Below are positions 4,028 to 30,966 of a stretch of 64,000 bases of DNA, piece by piece. Positions within the stretch are counted from its first letter, which is position 1. Each line of letters begins with the position of its first letter. The stretch is taken from contig NZ_JAQZAO010000017.1 of assembly GCF_028737315.1 (NCBI RefSeq), positions 1-64,000 of the forward strand. Direction: 5' to 3'. Source of the DNA: Actinomycetospora lemnae (GTDB lineage: Bacteria > Actinomycetota > Actinomycetes > Mycobacteriales > Pseudonocardiaceae). The notes under the pieces are model-generated. The model did no database searches and was not told where the DNA came from. It saw only the letters and a list, made by a program, of their open reading frames with translations. The translations under genes and the position numbers were made by a program.

Positions 4028-4069
4028 CGTGAGCGGACTCCGGAGCTGTCGCGCCACAGTCCGCTCACG
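4028..4069. terminator. Bidirectional hairpin terminator
   Basis: A perfect 12-bp inverted repeat (left arm CGTGAGCGGACT at 4028-4039, right arm 4058-4069) with an 18-base loop lies between the convergent gntR and fchA-like genes. There is no U-tract, as is common in actinobacteria. It can end transcription from both sides. Confidence 0.7.
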
Positions 4070-4073
4070 GGGG

Positions 4074-4580: not shown

Positions 4581-4630
4581 AACGCCTCCCACGGGGTCGT
4601 CCGGCGTCGCGTCTCCGGCCGCCGACGTCT

Positions 4631-7738
<3,108 letters not shown>

Positions 7739-7746
<8 letters not shown>

Positions 7747-10773: not shown

Positions 10774-10794
10774 GAGAGCTCCCGGGGATCCGGC

Positions 10795-16764: not shown

Positions 16765-18087
16765 TCAGCTCCCGATCCCGGGGATCCAGGACGTGCCCGC
16801 CAGCGGCACCCGGGCCATCGCGGCCGCCTCGATGGTCAGCGCGACGAGGTCCTCGGGCTCGAGGTGCTGGACGTGGGCCTTGCCGCAGGCCCGGGCCAGG
16901 GTCTGGGCCTCCATGGTCAGCACCCGCAGGTAGTTCGCGACACGGCGCCCGCCCTCGACGGGGTCGAGGCGGCCGGCGAGCTCGGGGTCCTGGGTGGTGA
17001 TCCCGGCGGGGTCGCGGCCGTCCTGGAAGTCGTCGTAGTAGCCCGCGGCCGACCCGATGGCCTCGTACTCCTCGGCGTACTGCGGGTCGTTGTCGCCCAG
17101 CGCGATGAGCGCCGCGGTCCCGATCGCCACCGCGTCGGCACCGAGCGCCATGGCCTTGGCGACGTCGGCGCCGGTGCGGATGCCGCCGGAGACGATGAGC
17201 TGGACCTTGCGGTGCATCCCGAGCTCGCGCAGCGCCTGCACGGCCTGCGGGATGGCCGCGAGGATCGGGATGCCGACGTGCTCGATGAACACCTCCTGGG
17301 TGGCGGCCGTGCCGCCCTGCATCCCGTCGACCACCACGACGTCCGCGCCGGCGGCGACGGCGAGCTTGACGTCGTAGTACGTGCGGGTCGCGCCGACCTT
17401 GACGTAGATCGGCTTCTCCCAGTCGGTGATCTCGCGCAGCTCACCGATCTTGATGGTCAGGTCGTCGGGGCCGGTCCAGTCGGGGTGCCGGCACGCGGAG
17501 CGCTGGTCGATGCCCGCCGGCAGGGTGCGCATCTCGGCGACCCGATCGGAGATCTTCTGGCCGAGCAGCATCCCGCCCCCGCCCGGCTTGGCGCCCTGCC
17601 CGAGCACCACCTCGATGGCGTCGGCGGCCCGCAGGTGGTCCGGGTTCATGCCGTAGCGGCTGGGCAGCAGCTGGTAGACCAGCGTCTTCGACTCGCCCCG
17701 CTCCTCGTCGGTCATGCCGCCGTCGCCGGTGGTCGTCGACGTGCCCACCTCGGAGGCACCCCGCCCGAGCGCCTCCTTGGCCTGCGCCGAGAGCGCACCG
17801 AAGCTCATGCCGGCGATGGTCACGGGGATGTCGAGGTGCAGCGGCCGCGTCGCGTGCCGGTCGCCGAGCACGACGTCGGTGTCGCAGCGCTCGCGGTAGC
17901 CCTCCAGCGGGTAGCGCGACATCGACGCGCCCAGGAACAGCAGGTCGTCGAAGTGCGGCACCGCCCGCTTGGCGCCCCACCCGCGGATGTCGTAGACGCC
18001 GGTGCGCGCGGCGTGCTGGATCGCGGCGATGGACGCGCGGTCGAACGTCGCCGACTCGCGCAGGCCCCGCTCCGAGGGATCCTTCAT
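16765..18087 (-). CDS. mgsC: N-methylglutamate synthase FMN subunit (GlxD-like)
   Basis: This 440-residue protein is homologous to the FMN-binding synthase domain of glutamate synthase. Visible core: MSFGALSAQAKEALGRGAS, KPGGGGMLLGQKISDRVAEM, VVVVDGMQGGTAATQEVF and SGGIRTGADVAKAMALGADA. In N-methylglutamate synthase this subunit transfers methylamine-derived nitrogen to glutamate. The Cys-rich [3Fe-4S] segment of GltB is missing before GITTQDPEL. It directly follows mgsB with no gap. GlxD of unknown role is the alternative name, and the nearby gmaS and mgdABCD favour MgsC. Confidence 0.85.
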   Translation of the reverse strand: MKDPSERGLRESATFDRASIAAIQHAARTGVYDIRGWGAKRAVPHFDDLLFLGASMSRYPLEGYRERCDTDVVLGDRHATRPLHLDIPVTIAGMSFGALSAQAKEALGRGASEVGTSTTTGDGGMTDEERGESKTLVYQLLPSRYGMNPDHLRAADAIEVVLGQGAKPGGGGMLLGQKISDRVAEMRTLPAGIDQRSACRHPDWTGPDDLTIKIGELREITDWEKPIYVKVGATRTYYDVKLAVAAGADVVVVDGMQGGTAATQEVFIEHVGIPILAAIPQAVQALRELGMHRKVQLIVSGGIRTGADVAKAMALGADAVAIGTAALIALGDNDPQYAEEYEAIGSAAGYYDDFQDGRDPAGITTQDPELAGRLDPVEGGRRVANYLRVLTMEAQTLARACGKAHVQHLEPEDLVALTIEAAAMARVPLAGTSWIPGIGS

Positions 18088-18819
18088 CTAGTACGTCCCC
18101 GAGTGCTCGCTGGTGAAGTGGTACAGACCCCGCGCCGAGCCGTAGCGGCGGAACTCGCCCGGGTCGTGGTCGAACCCCGCGGCTCTCAGCAGCTCGGCCA
18201 GCTCCGCGCGGTGCTCCTCGCGCATCTCCTTCTCGACGCAGTCCGCGCCCAGCGCCCCGACCGACCCGCGCACGTAGAGCCGTGCCTCGTAGATCGAGTC
18301 GCCCAGCCCGTCCCCGGCGTCGCCGCACACGACCAGGCGCCCGGCCTGGGCCATGAACGCGCTCATCGGGCCGACCGAGCCGCCGACGACGATGTCGATG
18401 CCCTTCATCGAGATCCCGCAGCGCATCGACGCCGACCCCTCGATGACCAGCAGCCCGCCGCGCCCCGTGGCCCCGGCCGACTGCGACGCGTCCCCGCGTA
18501 CCCGCACCGTGCCGGACATCATGTTCTCGGCGACGCCGTTGCCCGCCGACCCGTCGACCACGACGTGCGCCAGCTGGTTCATGCCGGCGCAGAAGTAGCC
18601 GGCGTGCCCGCGGACGTGGACGTCGATCTCGTCGTGGATGCCGGCGCCGATGGAGTGCGCGCCCTGCGGGTGGAGCACCTCGTAGGACGTCGCGGTGGGC
18701 GCGTGGAGCTCGGCGTTGAGCTGCCGCACCGTCGCGGAGGCGAGGTCGATCGTGACGGTGTGCACGGTGTGCACGGCGCTCTCGCGCGCGTCGGCCTCGG
18801 AGCGGCTCAGCGCTGCCAC
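18088..18819 (-). CDS. mgsB: N-methylglutamate synthase GXGXG subunit (GlxC-like)
   Basis: This 243-residue protein matches the C-terminal GXGXG beta-helix domain of glutamate synthase. It has repeated glycine turns such as HVRGHAGYFCAGMN, GSAGNGVAENMMSG, GATGRGGLLVIEG and GDAGDGLGDSIY. It is thought to be a structural partner in the synthase. The GTG at 18819 overlaps the mgsA end by 13 bases. A later GTG before HTVHTVTIDLASATV is also possible, so the start is uncertain. The stop abuts the mgsC start. Confidence 0.85.
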   Translation of the reverse strand: MAALSRSEADARESAVHTVHTVTIDLASATVRQLNAELHAPTATSYEVLHPQGAHSIGAGIHDEIDVHVRGHAGYFCAGMNQLAHVVVDGSAGNGVAENMMSGTVRVRGDASQSAGATGRGGLLVIEGSASMRCGISMKGIDIVVGGSVGPMSAFMAQAGRLVVCGDAGDGLGDSIYEARLYVRGSVGALGADCVEKEMREEHRAELAELLRAAGFDHDPGEFRRYGSARGLYHFTSEHSGTY

Positions 18820-19700
18820 GTGTACACCTTGCCGGGGTCGGGCTCGAAGATCCGGGCCTCGTCGATGCCGGGCAGGTCGGCCAGCGCCCGGAACTCCGAG
18901 GCCATCGCCACCCAGCGCGGGTGCTCGGCGATCACCGCGGGCTTGCAGGCGATCTCGTCGCGGACCACGGCGAAGCCGTCCGCGGTGGTGACGAGCAGCG
19001 TGTAGAAGCCGTCGAACGTCTCCCCCAGGCGCAGCAGCGCCTTCTCGAGGTCGTCGCCCTCGGCCAGGCACGCCGCGACGAACCGGGCTCCGACCTCGGA
19101 GTCGTTCTCCGAGTCGAACACGACGCCCTGGCGCGCCAGCTCGCGACGGATCGTGGCGTGGTTGGAGAACGAGCCGTTGTGCACCAGGCACTGGTCGGCG
19201 CCCACCGAGTACGGGTGGCAGCCCTCCGGGTTGATCGCCGACTCCGTCGCCATGCGGGTGTGGGCGAGGCCCTGCCAGCCGGTGACGTCGCGCAGCCCGT
19301 AGGTGCGGGCGAGGTCCTGCGGGTGGCCGGCCCCCTTGTAGACGACGAGGTCGGTGCCGCTGCCGACGACCAGCGCGCCGGGGGCGGCCGCGGCCACCGC
19401 CGCGATCAGCGCGTCGACCGCGACCGGAGCGGTCAGCACCGTCGTGTCCCCCGCCGCCTGCGTCGTGACCGCGGGCGTGCCCGGGAGCAGCCCGGCGACG
19501 GTCGTGGCGAGGTCGCCCGGCGCGCGCAGCACCGACACGGCCGCGTGACCCGGCGGGTTGCGCTCCTCGTCGCCGTAGACGGCGATGCCCACCGAGTCGG
19601 GCCCGCGCTCCGAGACCCCGCAGAGCATGTCGTCGAGCAGGCGCCCCAGCATCGGGTGCAGCGCGGGGTCGCGGAGGTGGAGACCGATGATGCCGCACAT
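18807..19700 (-). CDS. mgsA: N-methylglutamate synthase amidotransferase-like subunit (GlxB-like)
   Basis: This 297-residue class II (Ntn) glutamine amidotransferase-like protein starts MCGIIGLHL, so Cys2 becomes the nucleophile. That fixes the ATG at 19700. Other family features are LAHTRMATESAINPEGCHP and CLVHNGSFSNH. In the pathway it would release methylamine from gamma-glutamylmethylamide and deliver it to MgsBC. It is first in mgsA-B-C, with about 100 bases upstream before the permease operon end. Confidence 0.87.
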   Translation of the reverse strand: MCGIIGLHLRDPALHPMLGRLLDDMLCGVSERGPDSVGIAVYGDEERNPPGHAAVSVLRAPGDLATTVAGLLPGTPAVTTQAAGDTTVLTAPVAVDALIAAVAAAAPGALVVGSGTDLVVYKGAGHPQDLARTYGLRDVTGWQGLAHTRMATESAINPEGCHPYSVGADQCLVHNGSFSNHATIRRELARQGVVFDSENDSEVGARFVAACLAEGDDLEKALLRLGETFDGFYTLLVTTADGFAVVRDEIACKPAVIAEHPRWVAMASEFRALADLPGIDEARIFEPDPGKVYTWQR

Positions 19701-19776
19701 GGCGCTCTGCCTTCCTGCGTCGGAGGGGAGGACCGGGTCGAGCCGAGGGTCTTGAGGAGAAACTACGTTGCCCGCC

Positions 19777-19784
19777 ACGAAACG
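19777..19784. promoter_or_regulatory. Possible shared regulator half-site upstream of mgsA
   Basis: ACGAAACG at 19777-19784 lies in the 99-base gap before mgsA. The same 8-mer occurs at 24221-24228, between the GntR gene and gmaS, in both cases followed by a GTCGAC. A common binding site for the XRE-cupin regulator is possible but weakly supported. Confidence 0.25.
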
Positions 19785-19799
19785 TCGACCGTCGGACGA

Positions 19800-20096
19800 C
19801 TACCCCGTCGTCGTCCCCGCCGCCGAGCCCGCTGTCGTGTCGGACGCCGTGTCCGCGGCCGCCCGGCGCGACGCCCAGGTGTAGGCGTCCAGGACGCTCA
19901 CCGCGTAGACGAACAGGCCCCCGGCCAGACGGCCGACGAGGGACGTCTCCGGGCTCGTGAGCTGCCAGGTGATGACGCCGAGCAGCAGCGTGTAGAAGGC
20001 GAACATCAGGCCGCGGACCGGCAGGCGGGCGAGCACGTGCCCCATGCCGGGCAGGACGACGGCGACGAGGAGCACCAGCCAGGGCCGCACGCGCAT
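19800..20096 (-). CDS. Small membrane protein of the permease operon
   Basis: This 98-residue protein has two to three hydrophobic helices (WLVLLVAVVLPGMGHVLA, GLMFAFYTLLLGVITW, LAGGLFVYAVSVLDAYTWA) and a Thr/Ala-rich tail. The P-G-M-G-H turn resembles small TM2/DUF5683-type proteins. The ATG overlaps the stop of the gene before it by one base. Last gene of the six-gene membrane unit, followed by mgsA about 100 bases on. Function unknown. Confidence 0.65.
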   Translation of the reverse strand: MRVRPWLVLLVAVVLPGMGHVLARLPVRGLMFAFYTLLLGVITWQLTSPETSLVGRLAGGLFVYAVSVLDAYTWASRRAAADTASDTTAGSAAGTTTG

Positions 20097-20809
20097 CACG
20101 CCACCGTCCTCGTGCTCGTGCCCGCCGGCACCCGGTCCCCCACGGCGTCGCCCACCGCGGTGAGGACGTCGAGGGCCCGGCGCACGGCCGCGGCGTCGGC
20201 GCGCGTCCGGTCGAAGACCGCGCGGCGGGTGGTGCGGTAGCTCGCCTGGTCGCCCTCGGCGACGCGCAGGACGACGCGGACGCCGCGGCGCCCGATGCCC
20301 AGCTCCTTCGTCACGGGATCCGCCAGGAGGTCGGCGGCCGGGTCGAGGGCGCGGGCCAGCGCCGCCGGCGCGGGTGCCCGGTCCGCCCCGGCGCAGGAGA
20401 CCCGGGACGGCCGCGGGACGCCCGGGGGCGGCGGGAGCTCGTGGGGGAAGCCGGCGTCGGGCGAGAAGACCTCGCAGCCCTGCGGGCGCAGCAGGACGTT
20501 GACGGTGCCCGCGACCTCCAGCGGGCGCTCCACGAGGACCTCCACCCACAGCACGGGCAGCTTGCGCAGGGCCAGCGTGTCGACCAGCGCCCGCACCGTC
20601 ACCGGGCGGCCCTCCCACCGCCCGGTGAGCACCGGGTAGCCCCGCGACGGGTCACCGGACAGGCGCGCGTCGGCGAGCAGCGGCACGACCTCGTCGAACA
20701 GCTGCGCGCGCTCCGCGGCGTCGGCCCGGCGCGCACCACGGTGCAGCACGGTCAGCGCGACCGTGGCCGCCACGAGCACCAGCAGGACGCCGGCCGTCGT
20801 CGGCGACAC
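20096..20809 (-). CDS. Membrane-anchored protein of the permease operon, unknown
   Basis: This 237-residue protein has one N-terminal membrane helix (TTAGVLLVLVAATVALTVL) and a soluble remainder of mixed alpha/beta pattern. The latter includes RGYPVLTGRWEGRPVTVRAL and LPVLWVEVLVERPLEVAGTV, and probably lies in the cytoplasm. The GTG start is two bases after the permease stop. I recognise no family. Its fixed place between permease and mgsA suggests a role in amine uptake or enzyme anchoring, which is speculation. Confidence 0.65.
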   Translation of the reverse strand: MSPTTAGVLLVLVAATVALTVLHRGARRADAAERAQLFDEVVPLLADARLSGDPSRGYPVLTGRWEGRPVTVRALVDTLALRKLPVLWVEVLVERPLEVAGTVNVLLRPQGCEVFSPDAGFPHELPPPPGVPRPSRVSCAGADRAPAPAALARALDPAADLLADPVTKELGIGRRGVRVVLRVAEGDQASYRTTRRAVFDRTRADAAAVRRALDVLTAVGDAVGDRVPAGTSTRTVA

Positions 20810-20811
20810 CG

Positions 20812-22293
20812 TCAGTACCCCTGCGGCCGGGGCAGGTCCGCGGTGAACTGCGCGCCGCGGCGGACGAACTTGTAGCGGCGCACCACGAACCAGATCGAGG
20901 CGAGCAGGTAGAACGCCAGGATCGAGAGCAGGGCGATGCCGTACCCGAGGAACGTCGCGAAGAAGACGACGGCCGACAGGGCCAGCAGCGCGATCGCCGG
21001 CGCCGGGTGCAGCGGCAGCGTGTAGGCCCGGCGGATCGTCCCCAGCGGCCACAGCTTGCGGAACCTCATGAAGCTCGGCCCCATGAAGCTGTACATCAGC
21101 AGGCCCGACAGGATCGAGAACGTGATCACCGTCGAGAGCAGCGTCGGCTCGTCGAGCACCACGGGGAGCAGCGCGAACGCGATCGCCACCGGCACGAGGA
21201 ACACGATCGCCCGGAAGGGCGTGTGGTACCGCGGGTGCACCGCGCCGAACCACTCGGGCAGGTAGCGGTCGCGGCCCATCGAGAACCACGCCCGCGAGGC
21301 GTCGTTGATGCACCCGTTGGCCGACGCGAGCGTCGCGCACAGCGTCCCCAGCAGCAGGAGCACCACGAGGACGTCCTGCCCGGAGACGAGCGCGGCGTCG
21401 AACAGGGGTGTGATCGCCGTGCCCAGGTAGTGCCAGGGCAGGACGCCGGCACAGACGAACCAGGTCAGCGACGCCGCGATGATCAGCGTCATGATCCCCG
21501 CGAGGCTGCCCAGCGGCACCGACCGCGGCGCCGACCGGCACTCCTCGGCGGCCTGGGCCGTGCCCTCGATGCCGAGGTAGAACCACATGCCGAACTGGAA
21601 CGCGGCGATGACGCCGACCCAGCCGTAGGGCAGCGCGTTCGTCGCGTCGCCCGCGAGGCCCGCGAGGTCGAGCTCGGCCGTCGGCGACCAGGCCCGCAGG
21701 CCGATGAACAGGACCAGGATGGTCGCGAAGGCGAACCCGGTGATGACGAGGTTGAGCGTGAGCGACGCGAACACCCCGCGGTAGTTGAGGAACGCCAGCG
21801 CGAGGATCGCGAGCACCGCGAACGGGTAGGGCGAGAGCTCCTGCTCGCTGCCCAGCAGCCCGGACAGGGCGGTGAGCAGCGAGCTCAGCACGTTGGCGTT
21901 GGCGGCCTCGAGCATCGTGTACGCCAGCGTCAGGTACAGGCCCACGTTGAACGCCATGAGCGGCCCGACCGTGTGCTTGGCCTGGGCGTACTGCCCGCCG
22001 GCGGCCGGGATCGCCGAGGTCACCTCGGAGTTGATCATGACGATGCAGGTGTAGAGCAGGCCGACCACCCAGCAGGCGACCAGCGCGCCGTACATCCCGC
22101 CCTTCTCGACGGCGAAGTTCCAGCCCATGAACTCGCCGACGAGGACGATGCCCACGCCCAGCGCCCAGATGTGCATCGGGGCGAGCACCCGGCGCAGGGC
22201 CGGGCGCTCCGTGGTGGGCGGGCCCGCGGCGGGGGCGGCGGTCGTAGGGGCGGTGGTGGGCGCGGTGGTCGGGCGGTCCTCGGTGGCGCTCAT
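20812..22293 (-). CDS. APC superfamily amino acid/amine permease
   Basis: This 493-residue permease has about 12 membrane helices and an Ala/Thr/Pro-rich N-terminal tail. Characteristic segments are GVGIVLVGEFMGWNF (helix 1), AAGGQYAQAKHTVGP and GIEGTAQAAEECRSAPRSVP. They resemble ethanolamine-type permeases of the APC family. In a cluster for methylamine assimilation, the substrate may be methylamine, a related amine or glutamate. Its ATG overlaps the 60-residue gene's stop (ATGA). Confidence 0.88.
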   Translation of the reverse strand: MSATEDRPTTAPTTAPTTAAPAAGPPTTERPALRRVLAPMHIWALGVGIVLVGEFMGWNFAVEKGGMYGALVACWVVGLLYTCIVMINSEVTSAIPAAGGQYAQAKHTVGPLMAFNVGLYLTLAYTMLEAANANVLSSLLTALSGLLGSEQELSPYPFAVLAILALAFLNYRGVFASLTLNLVITGFAFATILVLFIGLRAWSPTAELDLAGLAGDATNALPYGWVGVIAAFQFGMWFYLGIEGTAQAAEECRSAPRSVPLGSLAGIMTLIIAASLTWFVCAGVLPWHYLGTAITPLFDAALVSGQDVLVVLLLLGTLCATLASANGCINDASRAWFSMGRDRYLPEWFGAVHPRYHTPFRAIVFLVPVAIAFALLPVVLDEPTLLSTVITFSILSGLLMYSFMGPSFMRFRKLWPLGTIRRAYTLPLHPAPAIALLALSAVVFFATFLGYGIALLSILAFYLLASIWFVVRRYKFVRRGAQFTADLPRPQGY

Positions 22294-22472
22294 GCCGACC
22301 TCACCCCTGCGTCGTCACCGGCGACCGGCGGGTCGTCCAGCGGATCCGGGGCGTTGACCAGCGTCGACTCGTCGTGCTGGCGACCCACCCGCAGCATGTC
22401 GGAGACCAGCCAGATCGCGAGGAGCCCGCTGAGCACCCACGCGACGAGCTCGACCACGGCCACCGTGCTCAT
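22290..22472 (-). CDS. 60-residue single-pass membrane protein
   Basis: A single transmembrane helix (VAVVELVAWVLSGLLAIWLV) is followed by an acidic, Pro-rich cytoplasmic tail (LVNAPDPLDDPPVAGDDAG). The ATG overlaps the previous stop by four bases and its own stop overlaps the permease start. The tight coupling suggests production in fixed ratio with the permease, perhaps as an accessory subunit. No family recognised. Confidence 0.65.
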   Translation of the reverse strand: MSTVAVVELVAWVLSGLLAIWLVSDMLRVGRQHDESTLVNAPDPLDDPPVAGDDAGVRSA

Positions 22473-22945
22473 GACGTCCTCCCCGGTTCCTCGTCGTGGT
22501 CGGGCGTGCGGGCGCCGAACCTCTCCTCGACGACCTCGCGGTACTCGCGGAACGAGACGCGGTAGACGAACGCGAGGTAGGCCGCGAGCAGGACCGCGGT
22601 GCCCACCAGCGCCAGGACGTCGATCGCGTACTTGTCCTCGCTCGGCTGGTTGGCCTCGACCCCGGCGGTGATCGTCTCGAGGTCGGCGACCCCGCTGTCG
22701 ATCATCTTCTGGTACTGCTCACGCTCGCCCGGGGTCAGCGGCAGCTCGGCCAGCGGCCGCGCCGGCGTGGTCGTCGTGTCCGTCGACTCGGTGAGGTAGG
22801 TCGTGGCGAACAGGGTCACGAAGATCAGCGCGAGGACGACGACGGCGTCGAGGAGCTGCCCCCGCACCGACTGCTTCGGCGGCTCGTAGTGCTCCTTGTG
22901 CTCACCGTGCTCACCGTGCTCCCGGGGCCCGCTCGGCGCGGTCAC
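22469..22945 (-). CDS. Two-helix membrane protein of the permease operon
   Basis: This 158-residue protein starts from GTG at 22945 (GTGA overlap with the gene before). The N-terminus is a His/Glu repeat (HGEHGEHKEHYEPPK) that might bind metal. It is followed by one helix (LLDAVVVLALIFVTLFATTYL), a 60-residue outer loop and a second helix (AIDVLALVGTAVLLAAYLAF). The tail ends FREYREVVEERFGA. Unknown function. Confidence 0.65.
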   Translation of the reverse strand: MTAPSGPREHGEHGEHKEHYEPPKQSVRGQLLDAVVVLALIFVTLFATTYLTESTDTTTTPARPLAELPLTPGEREQYQKMIDSGVADLETITAGVEANQPSEDKYAIDVLALVGTAVLLAAYLAFVYRVSFREYREVVEERFGARTPDHDEEPGRTS

Positions 22946-23241
22946 GACCTGCTCCCGCGCCGGGCCGCCCGGATGGCGTCCAGGTTCTCGATGTCGGGGC
23001 GGTAGACCTGCTCCTTCGCCAGCCGGTAGCGCCGGATCAGCGCGATCGCCGAGGCGGTGTTCAGGCCCCCCAGCGCCACCATCGCCACGCCGAGCACCAC
23101 GAGCAGCGCGGGACCCGGGACCGTCGGGGCGGCGGCGACGTAGACGAACACGAGCACCACCCACATGGCGACCGTGCTGCCGATCGCGAGGAGCCGGTCG
23201 CGGCGCAGCAGCGTCGCGATCCGGTCGTCGAGGCTTGCCAT
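22942..23241 (-). CDS. Two-helix membrane protein, first gene of permease operon
   Basis: This 99-residue protein has two helices (LLAIGSTVAMWVVLVFVYVA, ALLVVLGVAMVALGGLNTA) and a charged C-terminal tail (LAKEQVYRPDIENLDAIRAA). The ATG at 23241 is preferred over 23265 because GGAGG lies 7 bases upstream. It is the promoter-proximal gene of the operon, with a promoter and an inverted repeat about 120-180 bases upstream. No function known. Confidence 0.65.
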   Translation of the reverse strand: MASLDDRIATLLRRDRLLAIGSTVAMWVVLVFVYVAAAPTVPGPALLVVLGVAMVALGGLNTASAIALIRRYRLAKEQVYRPDIENLDAIRAARRGSRS

Positions 23242-23359
23242 CTGCGTGCCTCCGTTCGCGCGCACCGGCGAGCGGTCGGGGCGGGGGCGGCACCGTCACC
23301 ACGGACGGTCCACGCGAGCGTCACGACGTCGTGCGGTCGCTGGAAGACGGGCCTTGCAT

Positions 23360-23378
23360 TGGTCCGGTGGACGGACCA
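23360..23378. promoter_or_regulatory. Candidate operator of the permease operon
   Basis: A perfect inverted repeat, TGGTCCG (23360-23366) and CGGACCA (23372-23378) around GTGGA, lies just downstream of a good minus-strand promoter. TGGTC/GACCA half-sites are typical for FadR/LldR-type GntR proteins, and such a gene sits next door (23454-24182). Binding at this place would block transcription start. Confidence 0.5.
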
Positions 23379-23389
23379 TGGACGGGGCA

Positions 23390-23420
23390 ACGATAGGAGA
23401 CCCACGCCACACCGTGTCAA
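23390..23420 (-). promoter_or_regulatory. Promoter of the permease operon
   Basis: Read on the minus strand, TTGACA (23415-23420) is followed after 19 bases by TATCGT (23390-23395). CCTATC at 23392-23397 would give a 17-base spacer. This is a good vegetative-type promoter facing the 99-residue membrane gene, about 150 bases from its start, with the candidate operator immediately downstream. Confidence 0.5.
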
Positions 23421-23453
23421 GACCGCGTCAGATCCGCACGGAGCGGACAGCCC

Positions 23454-24182
23454 TCAGACCCGGGACCAGGCCACGTCGTCCGCGCCGTCCTCGGCGCCGA
23501 ACACGATGATCCTCAGTTGCCGCCGCGCCCCCTCCAGGTGCGCGCGCATCGCCGCCGACGCGGCCGCGGCGTCTCCGGCCGCGACCGCCTCGTAGATCGC
23601 CTGGTGGTCGCGCAGCGTCTCCTCGACCGGCTCGCGGAACGGGAGGAGGTCGCGGGGGCTGAACAGCTCGCCGCGGGCCGTCTCGACCGCCTCCTCGAGC
23701 CGCTCGTTGCCGGCGGCCCGCGCGAGGGCGACGTGGAAGCGGGAGTCGGCCTGGCGGAACGCGGTGCGCCCGATGACGTCGTGCAGCGCGAGCACCGCCT
23801 CGCGGACCGGGGCCAGCCCGGCCGCGGTGTGACGGCGCGCGGCCAGCGCCGCCGTCTCGGTCTCCAGGGCGATCCGGAAGTCGATGATGTCGTCCATCTC
23901 GCCGGCCTGGGCCCGCATCCGCGCCCGCCAGGCCTCGGCCGGGCGGTGCAGCTCGGTGACGTACGTGCCACCGGTGGAGCCGCGCCGGACCTCGACGTAG
24001 CCGTCCTCGCGGAGCTGGCGGATCGCCTCCCGCAGGCTGATCCGCGCGACGCCCAGCTGCTCGGCGAGCTCCCGCTCGGCGGGCAGGCGCTCGCCCGGGC
24101 TGACGTCGCCGCGGTGGATGCGCATGCGCAGGTGGTCCGCCACCGCCTGGGCCAGCGTGGTGGAGGAGACCTGCCGGGCCAT
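23454..24182 (-). CDS. GntR family regulator, FCD (FadR) subfamily
   Basis: This 242-residue protein has a GntR winged helix (about 10-80, LPAERELAEQLGVARISLREAIRQL) and an FCD domain (about 95-230). The FCD domain has the metal/ligand-type residues in DSRFHVALARAAGNERL and DHQAIYEAVAAGD. The ATG at 24182 is divergent from gmaS with 224 bases between, and the gene reads toward the permease operon. It is the natural candidate for control of gmaS-mgdABCD and of the permease promoter. Confidence 0.9.
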   Translation of the reverse strand: MARQVSSTTLAQAVADHLRMRIHRGDVSPGERLPAERELAEQLGVARISLREAIRQLREDGYVEVRRGSTGGTYVTELHRPAEAWRARMRAQAGEMDDIIDFRIALETETAALAARRHTAAGLAPVREAVLALHDVIGRTAFRQADSRFHVALARAAGNERLEEAVETARGELFSPRDLLPFREPVEETLRDHQAIYEAVAAGDAAAASAAMRAHLEGARRQLRIIVFGAEDGADDVAWSRV

Positions 24183-24406
24183 GGTCGGAGGCTACCCCGC
24201 GCGTCACGGTGCGTGTCCGGACGAAACGGCGTCGACGGTGCTCCGCGACCCGTGACGGGTGTGGCGGGGTTGACACCCTTCGGCGCGGGCGTGAATGGTT
24301 CTAAGTCCACACCTTGATCCGGCGGGAGCACGTCGACGCGACCGCCGCGGACGGGACACCGAGGGACCGACACGGTCGTCGGCCGTCACGACTCCGGGGA
24401 GGCGGC
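24183..24406. promoter_or_regulatory. Divergent gntR/gmaS control region
   Basis: This 224-base gap contains TTGACA on the plus strand (24270-24275), 17 bases before GAATGG (24293-24298), a possible gmaS promoter with a weak -10. Downstream is TGGTTCTAAGTCCA (24296-24309), a loose TGG/CCA inverted element. ACGAAACG at 24221-24228 repeats the mgsA upstream 8-mer. A GGGGAGG ribosome site is at 24396-24402. Confidence 0.35.
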
Positions 24407-25759
24407 ATGGGCGACGCGCGCAACGAGCTGCGGGAACGCGCCGAGGCGGACGGCATCGAGTTCTTCCTGGCGATGTTCGTGGACCTGCACGGCAAGCCCT
24501 GCGCGAAGGCGGTCCCGTCCTCGTCCTTCGACCTGCTCATGGACGGTGGCGCGGGGTTCGCGGGCTTCGCCGCCGGCGACCTCGGGCAGTCGCCCGCCGA
24601 CCCCGACGTGCTCGCGGTCCCGGACCCGGCGTCGTACACGAAGCTGCCGTGGAAGCCCGGCGTCGCGGTGCTGCACTGCGACCCGCACGTCGACGGGCGG
24701 CCCTGGCCCTACGCGCCGCGGGTGATCCTGCGCCGACAGCTCGACGAGCTCGCCGAGAAGCGCGGGTGGGTGTTCAACACCGGCACCGAGCTCGAGTACA
24801 GCCTGCTGCGCCGCCGCGCGGACGGGGGCCTCGAGCCCGCCGACCCGCACGACACCGCGGACAAGCCCTGCTACGAGGTCAAGGGCCTGACGCGCATGTG
24901 GGACCACCTCTCGACGGTGTCGCGTCACCTCAACACCCTGGAGTGGGGCAACTACGCGAACGACCACGAGGACGGCAACGGCCAGTTCGAGAACAACTGG
25001 CACTACGCCGACGCCCTCACCACGGCCGACCGCGCCATCTTCTTCCGCTACATGATCCACATGCTGGCGTACGACGCCGGCATGGTCGCGACGTTCATGC
25101 CCAAGCCGCTGAGCCACCTCACCGGCAACGGCATGCACATCCACCAGAGCCTCTGGACGCAGGACGGGCAGGCCCTGTTCGCGGACGACACCGACCCGCT
25201 CGGCATGTCCCGCACCGGCTACCACTACCTCGGTGGGCTGATCGAGCACGGCCGGGCGTCGGCCGGGATCATCTGCCCGACCGTCAACTCCTACAAGCGC
25301 ATCGGCGTCGGCGCCCCGACCTCGGGCTCGACGTGGGCGCCGGCCTACGTCGCCTACGGCGGCAACAACCGCTCGGTGATGCTGCGGGTGCCCGAGGGCG
25401 GGCGCGTGGAGCACCGCGGGGTCGACGGGTCGGCCAACCCCTACCTGGCCGCCACCGTGCTGCTCGCCGCCGGCCTCGACGGCATCGACCGGGAGATCGA
25501 CCCCGGCGCGTGCACCGACGACAACCTCTTCACCCTCGGCGCCGACGAGGTCCGCGCCCGCGGCATCAAGCACCTGCCCCGCACCCTGGACCGCGCGGTG
25601 GAGGAGCTCGTCGGCGACGACGTCCTGCGCGCGGCGCTGGGCAAGACCTCGGGCGGCGACTTCGTCGACTACTTCGCCGCGGTCAAGCAGCAGGAGTTCG
25701 ACGAGTACCACGCCTCGGTGTCCGACTGGGAAGTGCGGCGCTACCTGACCCAGGCGTGA
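24407..25759 (+). CDS. gmaS: Gamma-glutamylmethylamide synthetase (type III GS-like)
   Basis: GmaS joins methylamine to glutamate with ATP, the entry step of the N-methylglutamate pathway. The 450-residue glutamine-synthetase fold shows VDLHGKPCAKAVP, FAGFAAGDLGQSPADPD, NTGTELEYSLL (metal site), GNGMHIHQSLW and YGGNNRSVMLRVPEGG. The type III synthetase GlnT is the close alternative and sequence alone does not separate them with certainty. Adjacent mgdABCD and mgsABC strongly favour GmaS. The ATG start follows GGGGAGG. The mgdABCD genes follow on the same strand after 31 bases. Confidence 0.85.
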   Translation: MGDARNELRERAEADGIEFFLAMFVDLHGKPCAKAVPSSSFDLLMDGGAGFAGFAAGDLGQSPADPDVLAVPDPASYTKLPWKPGVAVLHCDPHVDGRPWPYAPRVILRRQLDELAEKRGWVFNTGTELEYSLLRRRADGGLEPADPHDTADKPCYEVKGLTRMWDHLSTVSRHLNTLEWGNYANDHEDGNGQFENNWHYADALTTADRAIFFRYMIHMLAYDAGMVATFMPKPLSHLTGNGMHIHQSLWTQDGQALFADDTDPLGMSRTGYHYLGGLIEHGRASAGIICPTVNSYKRIGVGAPTSGSTWAPAYVAYGGNNRSVMLRVPEGGRVEHRGVDGSANPYLAATVLLAAGLDGIDREIDPGACTDDNLFTLGADEVRARGIKHLPRTLDRAVEELVGDDVLRAALGKTSGGDFVDYFAAVKQQEFDEYHASVSDWEVRRYLTQA

Positions 25760-25790
25760 GACGCACCGAACCGTCGAGGAGGACGCCCCG

Positions 25791-27077: not shown

Positions 27078-27126
27078 GCGCCCCGGCGTGCCCGTCCCTG
27101 CCCCGACCCTTCCCGAGGTGACCGCC

Positions 27127-27423
27127 ATGATGCTGCTCCCCTGCCCCTGGTGCGGGCCCCGCAACGCGACGGAGTTCCGGTTCGTCGGCGAGGCCGGACC
27201 GCGGCCGGACCCCGCGACCGTGACGCCCGAGCAGTGGCGCCACTACCTCTACGTCCACGCCAACCGGTGCGGCTGGTCGACGGAGACCTGGTACCACCGC
27301 GCCGGCTGTCGCCGGTACCTGTCGGTCGAGCGGCACACGCTCACCCACGAGATCCGCACGGTGCGGGACACGGCGACGGGGACGACGAGCGCGAGCACCG
27401 CGACCCCGGAGGCCGCCCGATGA
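27127..27423 (+). CDS. mgdB: N-methylglutamate dehydrogenase subunit B (SoxD-like)
   Basis: This 98-residue SoxD-type zinc protein has Cys6 and Cys9 (PCPWCG) and His57 and Cys61 (WYHRAGC) in the expected spacing, plus an extra Cys48. The C-terminus has a Thr/Ser/Ala extension beyond SoxD. The ATG at 27127 follows GAGGTGA (a second ATG is at 27130). The stop overlaps the mgdC start (ATGA). It is too diverged to be a simple duplicate of the soxD at 10.5 kb. Confidence 0.88.
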   Translation: MMLLPCPWCGPRNATEFRFVGEAGPRPDPATVTPEQWRHYLYVHANRCGWSTETWYHRAGCRRYLSVERHTLTHEIRTVRDTATGTTSASTATPEAAR

Positions 27424-30266
27424 GCCTGCTCCCCACGCCCCGGCGCCCCCGGGCCGCCCGACCCACCGACCGCGCCGACGCGGAGCGCCTGCCGCCGCGC
27501 GCGGGCGAGGTCATCGACCGCCGCCGCACGGTGGGCTTCCGCTGGAACGGCACCCCGTACACCGGCCACCCCGGCGACACGATCGTCTCGGCGCTCGCCG
27601 CGGCCGGGGAGCGCGTGTTCTCGCGCAGCTACAAGTACCACCGCCCGCGCGGCCTGCTGACCGCGAACTACCTCGACCCCGGCTGCATGGTCCAGGTCGG
27701 CGACGAGCCCAACGTCCGCGGCGCCCACCGGCTCCTCACCGACGGCATGGACGTGCGCTCGCAGAACACCTGGCCGTCGCTGAGGTTCGACGTCCGCGCC
27801 GTCAACGGGCTCGCGAGCCGCTTCCTCGCCACCGGCTTCTACTACAAGACCTTCATCAAGCCCGAGGTGCTCTGGCCGGCCTACGAGAAGGTGCTGCGCA
27901 CGTTCGTCCACGCCGGCGAGGTGCCGCCGGACAGCGCCCCCGGGCACTACGACAAGCGCTACGCCCACCCCGACGTCGTCGTCGCCGGCGGCGGACCGGC
28001 CGGCATGGCGGCCGCCGTCGCCGCCGCCCGGGCCGGCGCCACGGTGATGCTCGTCGAGGAGGAGCACCAGCTCGGCGGGCACCTGCGCTGGGGCGGCCCG
28101 GCCGAGCTCGCGCGCCTGGCGGAGCTGCGCGCGCTGGTCGCCGCCGAGCCCGCGATCGAGGTGCTCACCGACGCCGTCGTCGGCGCCCGCTTCGACGACA
28201 ACTGGATCCCCGTCGTCGCGCGCGGGATCCCCGGGATCGACGAGCGCCTGATCAAGGCCCGCGCGGGCGCGCTGGTGGTCGCGCCGGGGCTGGTGGAACG
28301 GCCCTACGTCTTCGCCGGCAACGACCTGCCCGGCGTCGTGCTGTCCACCGCGGTCCGGCGCCTGGTGAACCTCCACGCCGTGCGGCCCGGCCGCCGGGCG
28401 GTCGTGCTCACCGCCAACCCCGAGGGCGACGCCGCCGTCGCCGACCTCGAGTCCGCCGGCGTCGAGGTGGCCGAGGTCGTCGACGCCCGCCGCGGCGAGG
28501 GCGTCCGCGCCGCGCACGGGCGCTCCGGGCTGCGGGTCGTCGAGCTCGGCGACGGGCGCCGCGTGGAGGCCGACCTGCTCGTCACCGCCGTCGGCTGGAC
28601 CGCGCCGACGTCGCTGCTCAACCAGTCCGGGGACCGCCCGGTCTACGAGCCGCGGGCGGCGCGCTTCCTCCCCGACCCGACGCGGATGCCGGAGAACGTG
28701 CTGGCCGCCGGCGGGATCGCCGGCGACGGGGACGTCGACGCGCTGGTCGAGCACGCGGACGCCGTGGGCCGGGAGGCGGCGCGGCGGGCCGGCCGCAGCG
28801 CGGGGGCGGCCGTCACGGTCCCCGCGCTGCCCGTCGCGGACCACCCCGAGCTGTTCAGCGCCGGTACCGGCGGGTTCGTCGACTTCTCCGAGGACGTCTC
28901 GGCCAAGGACATCACCACCGCCGCGGCCGAGGGCTACGACTCCGTCGAGCTGGTCAAGCGCTACACGACGGCGACGATGGGCCCGGCTCAGGGCAAGCTC
29001 GAGACGGTCAACACCGTCGCCGTCCTCGCCGCGGCGACCGGGCGCACGATCGCCGAGACCGGCACGACCACGTGGCGCCCGATGTGGGCACCGGTGACCC
29101 TGGGCGCGCTGGCCGGGCGCAGCCACGAGCCGGTGCGGTACTCGCCGATGCAGCCCTGGCACGAGCGCCACGGCGCGGTGCCGCTCATCGCCGGGCAGTG
29201 GATCCGCCCCGAGCACTACGGCGACCCGGCCGGCGAGGTCACCGCGGTCCGCACCGGCGTCGGGATCATCGACGTCACGCCGATCGGGAAGCTCGACCTG
29301 CGCGGACCGGACGTCGCGAAGCTGCTCAACCTGCTCTACGTCAACAAGTGGTCGAAGCTCGGCGTCGGCAGGGTGCGCTACGGGGTCATGTGCGCCGAGG
29401 ACGGCGTCGTCATGGACGACGGCGTCACCGGCCGGCTCGGCGAGGACCACTACCTCATGTCCACGACCTCGTCGGGGGCGGCGACGGTGTGGGAGTGGGT
29501 CGAGAACTGGCTGCAGACCGCCCACCCCGAGTGGCGGGTGCACGTCACGCCGGTGACCACGGCCTACGCCAGCATCAACATCGCCGGTCCGCGCTCGCGG
29601 GAGCTGCTGGGCCGCCTCACCGACGTCGACCTCGACCCCGAGCGGTTCGGCTACATGCAGGTCCGCACCGGGCGCGTCGCCGGCGTCGACGACTGCGTGC
29701 TGTGGCGCATCGGGTTCACCGGGGAGCTGTCCTACGAGGTCCACGTGCCCGCCGGCTACGGCCTGCACGTCTGGGAACGGCTCATGGCCACCGGCGCCGA
29801 CCTCGGCGTGCGGCCGTTCGGGGTGGAGGCCCAGCGCATCCTGCGCCTGGAGAAGGGCCACGCCATCGTCGGGCAGGACACCGACGGGCTGACCCAGGGC
29901 TTCAGCGCCGGGCTCGACGGGCTGATCAAGCTCGACAAGGACGACTTCGTCGGGCTGCCGGAGCTGCGCTGGCAGCGCGAGCGCGACACCGCCCCGCGCC
30001 TGGTCGGGCTGCGCCCGCTCGACGCGACGGTCGTCCCGCCCGAGGCCAGCCAGATCCTCGACCGCGCCGGGGGCATCGCCGGGCGGGTGACCTCGAGCCG
30101 GATGTCCCCCACCCTCGGCCGCTCGATCGGGCTGGCCCAGCTCGACCGCGAGCTCGCCGAGGTCGGCACCCGCGTCACCGTCCGGCTGCCCGACGGCCGC
30201 GACGTCGCCGCCGAGGTCACCGACCCCGTCCACGTCGACCCCGAGGGGGCGAAGCTCCGTGGCTGA
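27420..30266 (+). CDS. mgdC: N-methylglutamate dehydrogenase subunit C (SoxA-like)
   Basis: This 948-residue SoxA-type protein has an N-terminal ferredoxin-like domain (about 35-120, TPYTGHPGDTIVSALAAAGE). An FAD/NAD domain begins at VVVAGGGPAGMAAAVAAARA (about 181), and a GcvT-like folate domain occupies about 560-945 (GVMCAEDGVVMDDG, RLEKGHAIVGQDTDGLTQG). It carries a longer N-terminus and the FFKPEVLWPAY-like segment TFIKPEVLWPAYEKVLRTF absent from the 7.7 kb SoxA. It probably passes the one-carbon unit to folate. Confidence 0.88.
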   Translation: MSLLPTPRRPRAARPTDRADAERLPPRAGEVIDRRRTVGFRWNGTPYTGHPGDTIVSALAAAGERVFSRSYKYHRPRGLLTANYLDPGCMVQVGDEPNVRGAHRLLTDGMDVRSQNTWPSLRFDVRAVNGLASRFLATGFYYKTFIKPEVLWPAYEKVLRTFVHAGEVPPDSAPGHYDKRYAHPDVVVAGGGPAGMAAAVAAARAGATVMLVEEEHQLGGHLRWGGPAELARLAELRALVAAEPAIEVLTDAVVGARFDDNWIPVVARGIPGIDERLIKARAGALVVAPGLVERPYVFAGNDLPGVVLSTAVRRLVNLHAVRPGRRAVVLTANPEGDAAVADLESAGVEVAEVVDARRGEGVRAAHGRSGLRVVELGDGRRVEADLLVTAVGWTAPTSLLNQSGDRPVYEPRAARFLPDPTRMPENVLAAGGIAGDGDVDALVEHADAVGREAARRAGRSAGAAVTVPALPVADHPELFSAGTGGFVDFSEDVSAKDITTAAAEGYDSVELVKRYTTATMGPAQGKLETVNTVAVLAAATGRTIAETGTTTWRPMWAPVTLGALAGRSHEPVRYSPMQPWHERHGAVPLIAGQWIRPEHYGDPAGEVTAVRTGVGIIDVTPIGKLDLRGPDVAKLLNLLYVNKWSKLGVGRVRYGVMCAEDGVVMDDGVTGRLGEDHYLMSTTSSGAATVWEWVENWLQTAHPEWRVHVTPVTTAYASINIAGPRSRELLGRLTDVDLDPERFGYMQVRTGRVAGVDDCVLWRIGFTGELSYEVHVPAGYGLHVWERLMATGADLGVRPFGVEAQRILRLEKGHAIVGQDTDGLTQGFSAGLDGLIKLDKDDFVGLPELRWQRERDTAPRLVGLRPLDATVVPPEASQILDRAGGIAGRVTSSRMSPTLGRSIGLAQLDRELAEVGTRVTVRLPDGRDVAAEVTDPVHVDPEGAKLRG

Positions 30267-30966
30267 ATCCCCGGCTGACGCCGTTGCTGCGCAGACCGCC
30301 GTCGCGCGCAGCCCGATCGCGGCCGCCGTGCCGACCGTCCGGGACGGCTGGGAGGTCGACGCGACGGTCGCCGTCGGGCCGCTCACGCTCTCGGACGAGA
30401 CGCCGCTGGCCAAGGTCGCCGTGCGCGCTCCCTTCGACGGCGCGGCGCGCGCCGCCCTCGGCGTGCGGTACGGCCGCACGGGGCGGGTCGACATCGGCGG
30501 CGACAGGGTGCTGATCGCTGGCGCCGGTCCGGGCGAGTGGCTGGCGCTCGGCGCCCCCGGCACGGGCTCGGCGCTCGTGGCGTCGCTCGAGGAGCTGCTC
30601 GCCGGCACCGGCGAGTTCACCTCGGTCCTCGACCTCACCCACGGCCGCGCCCTCGTCCGCCTCGAGGGCGCGGCCGCCCCGAGCGTCCTCGCCGGCGTCT
30701 GCGCGATCGACTTCTCCGACACCGTCACCCCCGACGGCACCGCGCTGCGGACGTCGGTCGCGGCGGTGGTCACCGACGTGGTCCGCGACGACCGCGGCAC
30801 GCAGCGCAGCGGAGCTGCCGCGACGGGCGCTGTGGGCGTGCCCTCCTTCCTGCTCCACTGCGAGCGGTCGTCGGGGCAGTACCTCGCCGACGCGCTGCTC
30901 GAGGCGGGCGCCGGGGCGGGGCTCGAGGTCACGGGGTTCCGCGGGCTCGAGCCGTCGCGTGGCTGA
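30259..30966 (+). CDS. mgdD: N-methylglutamate dehydrogenase subunit D (SoxG-like)
   Basis: This 235-residue SoxG-type protein has the folate-domain pattern RVDIGGDRVLIAGAGPGEWLA, SVLDLTHGRALVRLEG and FLLHCERSSGQYLADALLEA. The GTG at 30259 overlaps the mgdC end. It contains one copy of a dispersed short repeat (30796-30817), translated GTQRSGA, in the loop before PSFLLHCERS. The 3' end overlaps the remnant GNAT gene on the other strand by 38 bases. Fourth gene of mgdABCD. Confidence 0.82.
   Translation: MAESPADAVAAQTAVARSPIAAAVPTVRDGWEVDATVAVGPLTLSDETPLAKVAVRAPFDGAARAALGVRYGRTGRVDIGGDRVLIAGAGPGEWLALGAPGTGSALVASLEELLAGTGEFTSVLDLTHGRALVRLEGAAAPSVLAGVCAIDFSDTVTPDGTALRTSVAAVVTDVVRDDRGTQRSGAAATGAVGVPSFLLHCERSSGQYLADALLEAGAGAGLEVTGFRGLEPSRG
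30796..30817 (+). repeat. Dispersed short repeat, copy 1 (inside mgdD)
   Basis: A 22-base stretch containing AGCGCAGCGGAGCTG is identical at 21 of 22 positions to 37476-37497 inside ileS. A third, related copy is inverted in ilvB at 49468-49492. It is translated here as GTQRSGA. Confidence 0.65.

What the first reader, a model, noticed from the sequence alone, without database searches (positions are those of the whole stretch)
16765..30966. Complete N-methylglutamate pathway for methylamine in an actinobacterium
gmaS, mgsABC and mgdABCD homologues lie together (18-31 kb), with an XRE-cupin regulator, a GntR regulator and a permease operon. The set would convert methylamine to gamma-glutamylmethylamide, then N-methylglutamate, then glutamate plus methylene-THF. 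The pathway is best described in Proteobacteria; finding the whole set next to a choline-derived sarcosine/dimethylglycine island in a high-GC actinobacterium is noteworthy. The individual homologies are seen directly; the pathway assignment rests on co-occurrence of all eight subunits.
Basis: partly seen in the sequence, partly recalled or inferred. Interest (0 to 1): 0.75.

Follow-up and report, generated by a model that had tools for sequence, protein, structure and literature searches.

The report
Methylamine-recycling gene cluster in Actinomycetospora
This soil actinobacterium carries what looks like a complete gene set for taking nitrogen from methylamine, a route known mainly from Proteobacteria, and the set has been pieced together from two different versions of the pathway.

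Summary
In detail: gmaS, mgsABC and a sarcosine-oxidase-like mgdABCD lie together with XRE-cupin and GntR regulators and a permease operon. The window is from Actinomycetospora.

The methylamine reading is the most likely one but untested. GmaS keeps 22 of 23 mapped residues of the solved Rhodovulum enzyme. MgdABCD lies outside the actinobacterial sarcosine-oxidase clade. gmaS, mgsABC and mgd are linked in 37 of 80 named loci chosen by gmaS. McTaggart 2015 already reported gmaS-mgsABC in two mycobacteria.

Against: of seven genomes found with this Mgd type without selecting on gmaS, only one has gmaS. Several of the others carry it beside betaine- and folate-type genes. The clade alone does not fix the substrate.

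New points: the cluster is a mosaic, gmaS-mgd of one lineage and mgsABC of another (AU p=1e-4 and 6e-6). Most class-draw gmaS-mgsABC loci have a single-subunit FAD enzyme (DAO) instead. In 11 family genomes, 6 have DAO, 5 Mgd, none both, none neither.

Verdict: new variant of a known kind.

The parts
16066..16731 (-). XRE-cupin regulator (PuuR-like HTH + Cupin_2)
   Evidence: Pfam HTH_31, Cupin_2; homologues beside mgs in proteobacterial clusters at 39-49%
16765..18087 (-). mgsC: FMN glutamate-synthase-like subunit of N-methylglutamate synthase
   Evidence: PF01645 306 bits; nested in the common actinobacterial clade
18088..18819 (-). mgsB: GXGXG subunit
   Evidence: PF01493; abuts mgsC (0 bp)
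18807..19700 (-). mgsA: class II glutamine amidotransferase subunit
   Evidence: amidotransferase families; Cys2 in 32 of 32 aligned rows
19800..20099 (-). U1, small membrane protein of the permease operon
   Evidence: two hydrophobic stretches; conserved order in relatives
20096..20809 (-). U2, unknown protein of the permease operon
   Evidence: no Pfam or NCBIfam match; conserved order
20812..22293 (-). APC-family permease, candidate methylamine importer
   Evidence: AA_permease_2; best NCBIfam match ethanolamine permease TIGR00908, 196.5 bits, below cut-off 381.75
22287..22466 (-). small membrane ORF of about 58 aa in the permease operon
   Evidence: conserved at this place in 14 loci
22469..22945 (-). 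tm158, small membrane protein
   Evidence: two hydrophobic stretches; found in 1 of 200 genomes of the order, the own one
22942..23265 (-). tm107, small membrane protein
23454..24182 (-). GntR-family regulator, divergent from gmaS
   Evidence: NanR/LldR-like matches; beside the cluster in many Pseudonocardiaceae loci
24407..25759 (+). gmaS: gamma-glutamylmethylamide synthetase
   Evidence: TIGR03105 590.6 bits; best solved relatives 9qur and 7cql; 22 of 23 active-site residues
25791..27077 (+). mgdA: SoxB-like beta subunit, presumed N-methylglutamate dehydrogenase
   Evidence: TIGR01373 527 bits; His196, Lys382, Arg93 conserved; Tyr379 clade-specific
27118..27423 (+). mgdB: SoxD-like delta subunit
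   Evidence: PF04267; Cys9, Cys12, His60, Cys64 in 19 of 21 rows
27420..30266 (+). mgdC: SoxA-like alpha subunit with folate-binding GCV_T domain
   Evidence: PF01571 220.7 bits, SO_alpha_A3; trees
30328..30966 (+). mgdD: SoxG-like gamma subunit
   Evidence: TIGR01375 52 bits

Best explanation
A complete N-methylglutamate (NMG) pathway for methylamine, most likely used as a nitrogen source. The APC permease imports methylamine (inferred). GmaS uses ATP to join it to glutamate, giving gamma-glutamylmethylamide. MgsABC converts that to N-methylglutamate; by analogy with glutamate synthase, the class II amidotransferase MgsA releases methylamine and the FMN subunit MgsC reduces the adduct (inferred). 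MgdABCD, a four-subunit flavoenzyme built like heterotetrameric sarcosine oxidase, oxidises the N-methyl group onto tetrahydrofolate and regenerates glutamate; it may also act on other N-methyl amino acids. The C1 unit leaves as methylene-THF and can end as formate through FolD and PurU. The cluster is a mosaic: an mgsABC-cupin unit of the type common in Pseudonocardiaceae is combined with a gmaS-mgdABCD unit of a separate actinobacterial lineage. Shown here: genes, linkage, clades, residues. Inferred: every enzymatic step and the transport.
For: (1) Gene content. (2) GmaS: 22 of 23 RhGmaS residues identical, including catalytic D186, E195, R322 and the GmaS-type A52 and W310 where glutamine synthetases have Asp and Glu (against PMC7948447). 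Other GS homologues of this genome score 328 bits or less against TIGR03105, versus 590. (3) The own genome has two SoxB-like places at E<=1e-80, with all 36 candidates scored: one with glyA, sdaA and purU, the sarcosine context, the other with gmaS. They fall in separate clades (each SH-aLRT 100). (4) gmaS+mgsABC+mgd linked in 37 of 80 named loci (loci chosen by gmaS). (5) purU and folD near mgdD in eight loci each, fhs in five and fchA-like in three of the relatives (one or two examples of folD, fhs, fchA profiled). purU or folD also in named proteobacterial clusters L171, L206, L207, L209, L213. (6) L171 joins glnT-mgsABC-soxBDAG to dimethylamine monooxygenase genes, whose product is methylamine. 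(7) Mosaic: one clade for MgsC of mgd-linked rows rejected, p=6.4e-6; window GmaS with the common clade rejected, p=1.05e-4. (8) No RuMP Hps over cut-off, which fits nitrogen use rather than that assimilation route.
Against: Of seven genomes, the own one aside, found with Mgd-clade subunits without selecting on gmaS (G102, G108, G127; G403, G405, G506, G512), only G127 has a TIGR03105 match at E<=1e-110; five of the other six are 80-86% complete, but G102 is 99%. Their proteins are interspersed in the actinobacterial Mgd clade and have the same Tyr379. Neighbours include glycine betaine transport, a GbcA-like oxygenase, a DMSP-demethylase-like GcvT protein and fhs, so these enzymes may act on sarcosine. 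The permease's best named family is ethanolamine permease, below cut-off. M. smegmatis expresses a glnT-mgsABC set in nitrogen starvation but does not grow on methylamine (PMC4222082). The GmaS residues are nearly the same in common-type rows. Gln175 of RhGmaS, part of the amine pocket, is Ala here and in all 31 rows of the two main actinobacterial groups. A. straminea (L087, nearest) and A. cinnamomea (L091) lack the permease operon at this place. The genome also has a copper amine oxidase. No expression, growth or enzyme data were found.
Confidence: 0.73

Rival explanations
1. The gmaS-linked SoxBDAG is mainly a second sarcosine (or betaine-derived N-methyl amino acid) dehydrogenase that happens to sit beside a gmaS-mgsABC set; the NMG route is incomplete or uses another last enzyme.
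For: Subunit architecture of heterotetrameric sarcosine oxidase with invariant His196, Lys382, Arg93. The same clade occurs without gmaS in six genomes, several with betaine- or folate-type neighbours. The window also holds a choline/betaine-type island.
Against: A canonical sarcosine set already lies about 13 kb away with glyA, sdaA and purU. Repeated linkage of this tetramer to gmaS and mgs across distant genera, and its replacement by a DAO in the same gene context. The window's GmaS and Mgd both group with gmaS-mgd loci.
Confidence: 0.15
2. The cluster assimilates another amine, most likely ethanolamine or ethylamine: the GS-like enzyme makes the gamma-glutamyl amide, MgsABC makes an N-alkylglutamate, and the SoxBDAG-like enzyme cleaves it.
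For: Permease best match is ethanolamine permease. RhGmaS also takes ethylamine (Km 58 uM against 27 uM for methylamine; PMC7948447). Streptomyces uses a gamma-glutamylethanolamide synthetase (PMC6529630, seen in search listing only). M. smegmatis, which expresses a glnT-mgsABC set, grows on ethanolamine but not methylamine.
Against: The folate-binding MgdC and neighbouring purU/folD/fhs in relatives fit a one-carbon product, which only an N-methyl group gives. Same architecture beside dimethylamine monooxygenase in L171. In the class draw the listed hits below the TIGR03105 cut-off score about 344-441 bits against 590 here (list cut short).
Confidence: 0.09
3. The genes are a relic or non-functional mosaic: mgsABC of one lineage does not work with gmaS-mgd of another.
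For: Statistically supported discordance.
Against: Open reading frames, and the arrangement persists in several Actinomycetospora species and in P. endophytica; other mixed arrangements in five further Pseudonocardia loci.
Confidence: 0.03

Closest known systems
N-methylglutamate pathway of Proteobacteria (gmaS, mgsABC, mgdABCD; Methyloversatilis universalis FAM5, PMC5023235, passages read)
   Same: Same eight subunits; fetched proteobacterial clusters share the XRE-cupin regulator type and purU/folD context
   Different: Actinobacterial Mgd and GmaS form their own groups; mgsABC and gmaS are in divergent operons here; extra GntR regulator and permease module
gmaS-mgsABC of methylamine-using Mycobacterium sp. 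141 and 155 (PMC5023230, passages and section 3.3.1 read)
   Same: gmaS and mgsABC together in an actinobacterium
   Different: There the candidate mgdABCD is at another place and has about 50% homologues in Arthrobacter; here mgd is linked and outside the actinobacterial sarcosine-oxidase clade
Heterotetrameric sarcosine oxidase SoxBDAG (1vrq, 2gag)
   Same: Four-subunit layout, folate domain, conserved His and Lys of the beta subunit
   Different: Different clade, Tyr379 for Gly, linked to gmaS not glyA
glnT-mgsABC-DAO cluster common in Actinobacteria (compare MSMEG_6259-6263 of M. smegmatis, PMC4222082 and PMC4617892, passages read)
   Same: mgsABC and cupin regulator of the window belong to this lineage
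   Different: Has a single-subunit FAD enzyme in place of mgdABCD and a different GmaS clade

Membership tests
N-methylglutamate pathway | gmaS, mgsABC and mgdABCD-like genes all encoded and linked | tested here: met
   conserved in relatives
N-methylglutamate pathway | methylamine supports growth or nitrogen supply, and needs gmaS | not testable with these tools
   no phenotype data for this organism seen in the listing
GmaS | type III GS family above curated cut-off | tested here: met
   590.6 vs 469.6 bits
GmaS | catalytic Asp177, Glu186, Arg312; Ala at Asp50' site; Trp at Glu-flap site (RhGmaS numbering) | tested here: met
   nearly the same in common-type rows, so not specific
GmaS | full amine pocket Tyr147, Gln175, Asp177, Glu179, Glu186, Asn188, Lys30' | tested here: inconclusive
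   6 of 7 met; Gln175 is Ala
N-methylglutamate synthase | three subunits: class II amidotransferase, GXGXG, FMN glutamate-synthase-like | tested here: met
N-methylglutamate dehydrogenase | SoxBDAG-like enzyme whose clade is tied to gmaS | tested here: inconclusive
   linked in gmaS-chosen loci, but six of seven other genomes with this clade lack gmaS
Sarcosine oxidase (heterotetrameric) | membership of the actinobacterial SoxA/SoxB clade | tested here: not met
   separate clades, each SH-aLRT 100
Sarcosine oxidase (heterotetrameric) | activity on sarcosine | not testable with these tools
   betaine-type neighbours of gmaS-less kin keep this open

The most novel reading that the evidence does not exclude
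Actinobacteria use two interchangeable terminal enzymes of different architecture for the NMG pathway: a folate-linked four-subunit MgdABCD, whose clade also serves betaine/sarcosine demethylation, and a single-subunit sarcosine-oxidase-like FAD enzyme (DAO) that would release formaldehyde. In the window's lineage the gmaS and DAO of a common-type cluster were displaced by a foreign gmaS-mgdABCD module while mgsABC and the cupin regulator stayed. The DAO, beside gmaS-mgsABC in 30 of 40 class-draw loci, would be an undescribed N-methylglutamate oxidase.
Probability: 0.4. Interest if true: 0.7.

Novelty: new variant of a known kind. Interest (0 to 1): 0.5.

Why it matters
gmaS is in use as a marker for methylamine users (abstract of PMC7948447), with knowledge drawn mostly from Proteobacteria. 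This cluster, shared by soil Pseudonocardiaceae, freshwater actinobacterial MAGs and Acidimicrobiia, points to a group of possible methylamine users that may go uncounted. The exchange of terminal enzymes offers a direct test of what the widespread glnT-mgsABC-DAO cluster of mycobacteria and other actinobacteria does; I found no assigned function for it in the papers I saw.

Tried and rejected
Rejected or withdrawn: (a) that Mgd-clade membership by itself marks an N-methylglutamate dehydrogenase. (b) That alphaproteobacterial Mgd proves several origins of Mgd: my first reading, drawn with a midpoint root. In one search all 12 Sox rows are on one side (SH-aLRT 88), but with more rows the proteobacterial Sox rows are not; the question is open. 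(c) That formaldehyde dehydrogenase commonly accompanies the DAO: found beside only two cluster loci (L170, L058; a third hit, L189, is a sarcosine locus). (d) GmaS versus GlnT as a test: one family.

Flaws in my runs: the gene caller read antisense frames in several high-GC loci and was replaced. The outgroup row was junk and one outgroup row (L003) was antisense; the GmaS test was repeated without outgroup. Trees are quick searches. 'Both' for L106 is a hit 41% like the divergent L170 enzyme and 29% like the main DAO.

Searches that gave little: searches returned mostly unrelated papers. Structure prediction was not used.
Full report
Setting. The window is part of one contig of a 6.06 Mb, 30-contig genome. 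Its gmaS is 97% identical to that of Actinomycetospora straminea and 83-94% to eight other Actinomycetospora records.

Naming. In my scripts these bore the labels mgdB, mgdD, mgdA and mgdG. The letter-to-subunit mapping is recalled, not taken from a call.

Anatomy. Two divergent transcription units face away from a 224-bp gap. To the right: gmaS, mgdA, mgdB, mgdC, mgdD, with gaps of 31, 40, -4 and 61 bp. To the left: GntR; then tm107, tm158, a 58-aa ORF, the APC permease, U2 and U1, tightly packed; then mgsA, mgsB, mgsC and the XRE-cupin gene. MgsA begins Met-Cys, and Cys2 is kept in 32 of 32 rows, as a class II amidotransferase nucleophile would be. The presumed zinc ligands of the SoxD-like subunit (Cys9, Cys12, His60, Cys64) are kept in 19 of 21 rows (the roles are recalled).

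GmaS. The two best solved relatives are 9qur ('glutamate--methylamine ligase') and 7cql; I take 7cql as the Rhodovulum sp. 12E13 enzyme because its aligned sequence gives every published residue at its published number. The residues come from PMC7948447, of which I read the abstract, the sections on characterisation, ligand binding and catalytic residues, and passages of two more. The window protein matches at 22 of 23 mapped residues: all three catalytic ones, and Ala and Trp at the two places where glutamine synthetases have Asp and Glu. The one difference, Gln175 to Ala184, is shared by all 31 rows of the two main actinobacterial groups (16 mgd-linked, 15 common type). The catalytic sites are the same in both groups bar one common-type row, so they do not tell the two apart.

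MgdABCD. The own genome has two SoxA-like matches at E<=1e-100 and two SoxB-like ones at E<=1e-80, all in the window. In a 67-row alpha-subunit tree the 34 gmaS-linked actinobacterial proteins and four class-draw rows form one clade (SH-aLRT 100), apart from a clade of actinobacterial SoxA that holds the window's other copy (100). The 34 rows came from the window and loci chosen by gmaS. In a 40-row alpha+beta tree each of these is one clade at 100: 16 actinobacterial Mgd rows, 7 alphaproteobacterial Mgd rows, 3 rows from Paraburkholderia and Acidithiobacillus caldus; all 12 Sox rows are on one side of a branch (88). The window's nearest proteobacterial kin is the Paraburkholderia/Acidithiobacillus group, together with L178 and L179, which have no gmaS in the stretch. 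Three rows lacking one subunit were dropped before that tree. His196, Lys382, Arg93 and Tyr96 of the beta subunit are kept in all 40 rows, apart from one Sox row with a gap at 93. Residue 379 is Tyr in 16 of 16 actinobacterial Mgd rows, Trp in the 3+2 related proteobacterial rows, and Gly in 12 of 12 Sox and 7 of 7 alphaproteobacterial Mgd rows.

The same clade without gmaS. Only G127 has a TIGR03105 match at E<=1e-110. G102 is 99% complete; the other five are 80-86%. The six rows with both subunits (from G102, G108 twice, G403, G506, G512; G405 was too short) are interspersed in the actinobacterial clade, with Tyr379 in all 7 beta subunits, and in this larger tree the proteobacterial Sox rows no longer stand with the actinobacterial ones. 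In the stretches: glycine betaine binding proteins (L265, L270), a ProV-like ATPase (L265), a GbcA-like oxygenase below cut-off (L270), a DMSP-demethylase-like GcvT protein and a homocysteine methyltransferase (L266), a DMGDH-like protein (L268) and formate-THF ligase (L266 profiled, L268 by similarity). L267 and L271 are short contigs, and L269 showed nothing telling. So the clade is used in at least one other setting, probably N-demethylation in betaine breakdown, and clade membership does not prove an N-methylglutamate dehydrogenase. The case for that step in the window rests on its position after gmaS, the repeated linkage, and the presence of a separate sarcosine set.

Distribution. In a class-wide draw, 45 of 394 genomes have TIGR03105 over its cut-off. 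I fetched the 47 over-cut-off places other than the window's own and 5 below. By the thresholds, 40 of these 52 stretches have gmaS and all three mgs genes: 30 with a linked DAO, 4 with linked mgd, 6 with neither. Of 80 named loci (the best 80 of at least 503, chosen for similarity to the window's GmaS), 65 have gmaS and all mgs genes. Of those, 36 have mgd, 1 mgd plus a doubtful DAO, 2 DAO, and 26 neither within the stretch held, which is often cut by a contig end; four more of the 80 have mgd with fewer mgs genes. In the order, a beta subunit 76-100% identical is found in 5 of 150 genomes, the own one included; the other listed matches are sarcosine-type at 45-51%. The mgd-bearing loci include Actinomycetospora, Pseudonocardia, Planosporangium, Tamaricihabitans, Acidimicrobiia and freshwater actinobacterial MAGs, and one MAG labelled Chloroflexi (L116), which may be misbinned.

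Context in relatives. Near mgdD of the named loci are purU (8 loci), folD (8), formate-THF ligase (5) and a methenyl-THF cyclohydrolase-like gene (3) (examples of folD, fhs and fchA identified; purU by similarity to the window's). In the window purU lies with the sarcosine set (1010-1876). An ammonium-transporter family occurs in 12 of 132 loci, next to gmaS in common-type ones such as L035. Named proteobacterial loci show the same logic: Sphingobium (L207) and A. caldus (L209) carry mgd, mgs, glnT, purU and folD, and Rhizobium (L171) adds dimethylamine monooxygenase.

Mosaic. The window's mgsABC nests inside the clade of common-type clusters (SH-aLRT 99 for a 24-row group of Pseudonocardiaceae and family f20), and its cupin regulator likewise (95 for a 20-row group), whereas its gmaS and mgd belong with the mgd-linked lineage (GmaS rows of that lineage on one side at 87/90, not significant). 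Holding the MgsC of 12 mgd-linked rows together is rejected (p=6.4e-6). Holding the window's GmaS group with the common type is rejected (p=1.05e-4). The groups were chosen after seeing identities, so these p values are optimistic. In P. dioxanivorans, P. sulfidoxydans, P. spinosispora, P. eucalypti and a Pseudonocardia MAG, MgsA is of the old type but MgsC of the common type, a breakpoint inside the operon.

Terminal-enzyme exchange. Four genomes of the window's own genus carry the common-type cluster gmaS-mgsABC-DAO-cupin. I searched whole genomes of 11 of the 12 gmaS-bearing family genomes (G650 was left out, because its stretch had no mgs genes). DAO (65-72% identity) is in 6, Mgd (75-100%) in 5, none has both and none neither; one of the 5, G640, is a partial match at a contig end. 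Weaker DAO-family matches at 34-37% in G550, G573 and G640 were not counted. Kinship makes these 11 fewer than 11 independent cases. This pattern, with the shared mgsABC, is what one expects if DAO and MgdABCD do the same step. DAO belongs to the FAD-dependent oxidoreductase family, nearest 1y56_B and SoxB among solved chains, and the one profiled in Pfam has no folate domain, so free formaldehyde would be the product (inference).

Counter-evidence. M. smegmatis expresses a type III GS-mgsABC set under GlnR control in nitrogen starvation and grows on ethanolamine but not on methylamine (PMC4222082, passages and one section). Either the common cluster has another substrate, or uptake or expression fails there. 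This weakens the exchange idea more than the assignment of the mgd-type cluster. That its cluster is of the common type is inferred from the gene order given there, not checked.

Prior art. PMC5023230 (passages and section 3.3.1 read) proposed the NMG pathway in two methylamine-using mycobacteria with mgd at another place. Searches in open PMC text listed no paper that I recognised as reporting the linked actinobacterial cluster, the mosaic or the DAO. Most listed papers were not opened; PMC11446756, which holds the terms, was not read, and subscription journals are mostly not covered.

Physiology. No RuMP hexulose-phosphate synthase over cut-off, one copper amine oxidase, one mycothiol-dependent formaldehyde dehydrogenase over cut-off. 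This fits methylamine as nitrogen and perhaps energy source. Serine-cycle genes were not searched.

Score. The finding is real, but the pathway is known, the actinobacterial half was partly reported in 2015, the last enzyme's substrate is not fixed by its clade, and function is untested. The modular exchange lifts it above ordinary.

Noticed in passing
L265, L266, L268, L270 (genomes G102, G108, G506, G512): Mgd-clade heterotetramers without gmaS, beside glycine betaine transport, GbcA-like, DMSP-demethylase-like GcvT, DMGDH-like or formate-THF ligase genes; probably a betaine/sarcosine demethylation cluster that uses the same enzyme clade.
   Followed up: partly
window 1010-13328: Canonical dimethylglycine/sarcosine island: purU, sdaA, dimethylglycine dehydrogenase-like gene, soxGADB and glyA; its soxA falls in the actinobacterial sarcosine oxidase clade.
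   Followed up: partly
window 19800-23265: Six-gene permease operon with five small or unknown partners; tm158 was found in 1 of 200 genomes of the order (the own one) but beside gmaS in 15 of 80 named loci. Candidate multi-component amine importer.
   Followed up: partly
L100:153-2545, L104, L249: A second, divergent GS (29-31% to GmaS), in L100 and L104 with an mgsA-like gene (mgsB-like too in L104), and a cupin regulator beside the cluster; perhaps a system for another amine.
   Followed up: no
L170:14336-16562: On a Streptomyces plasmid the gmaS-mgsABC set is followed by a different FAD oxidoreductase (30% to the main DAO) and a mycothiol-dependent formaldehyde dehydrogenase.
   Followed up: partly
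L169: The linear plasmid of Candidatus Mycobacterium methanotrophicum carries a common-type gmaS-mgsABC-DAO set among integrase and transposase genes.
   Followed up: no
L114:8056-9657: In some actinobacterial MAG loci an APC permease (best match trimethylamine N-oxide permease, below cut-off) with a Usp-family gene stands beside gmaS, in place of the window's permease operon.
   Followed up: no
window 42206-43864: Looks like a class I lysyl-tRNA synthetase (recalled from the N-terminal sequence, not searched).
   Followed up: no
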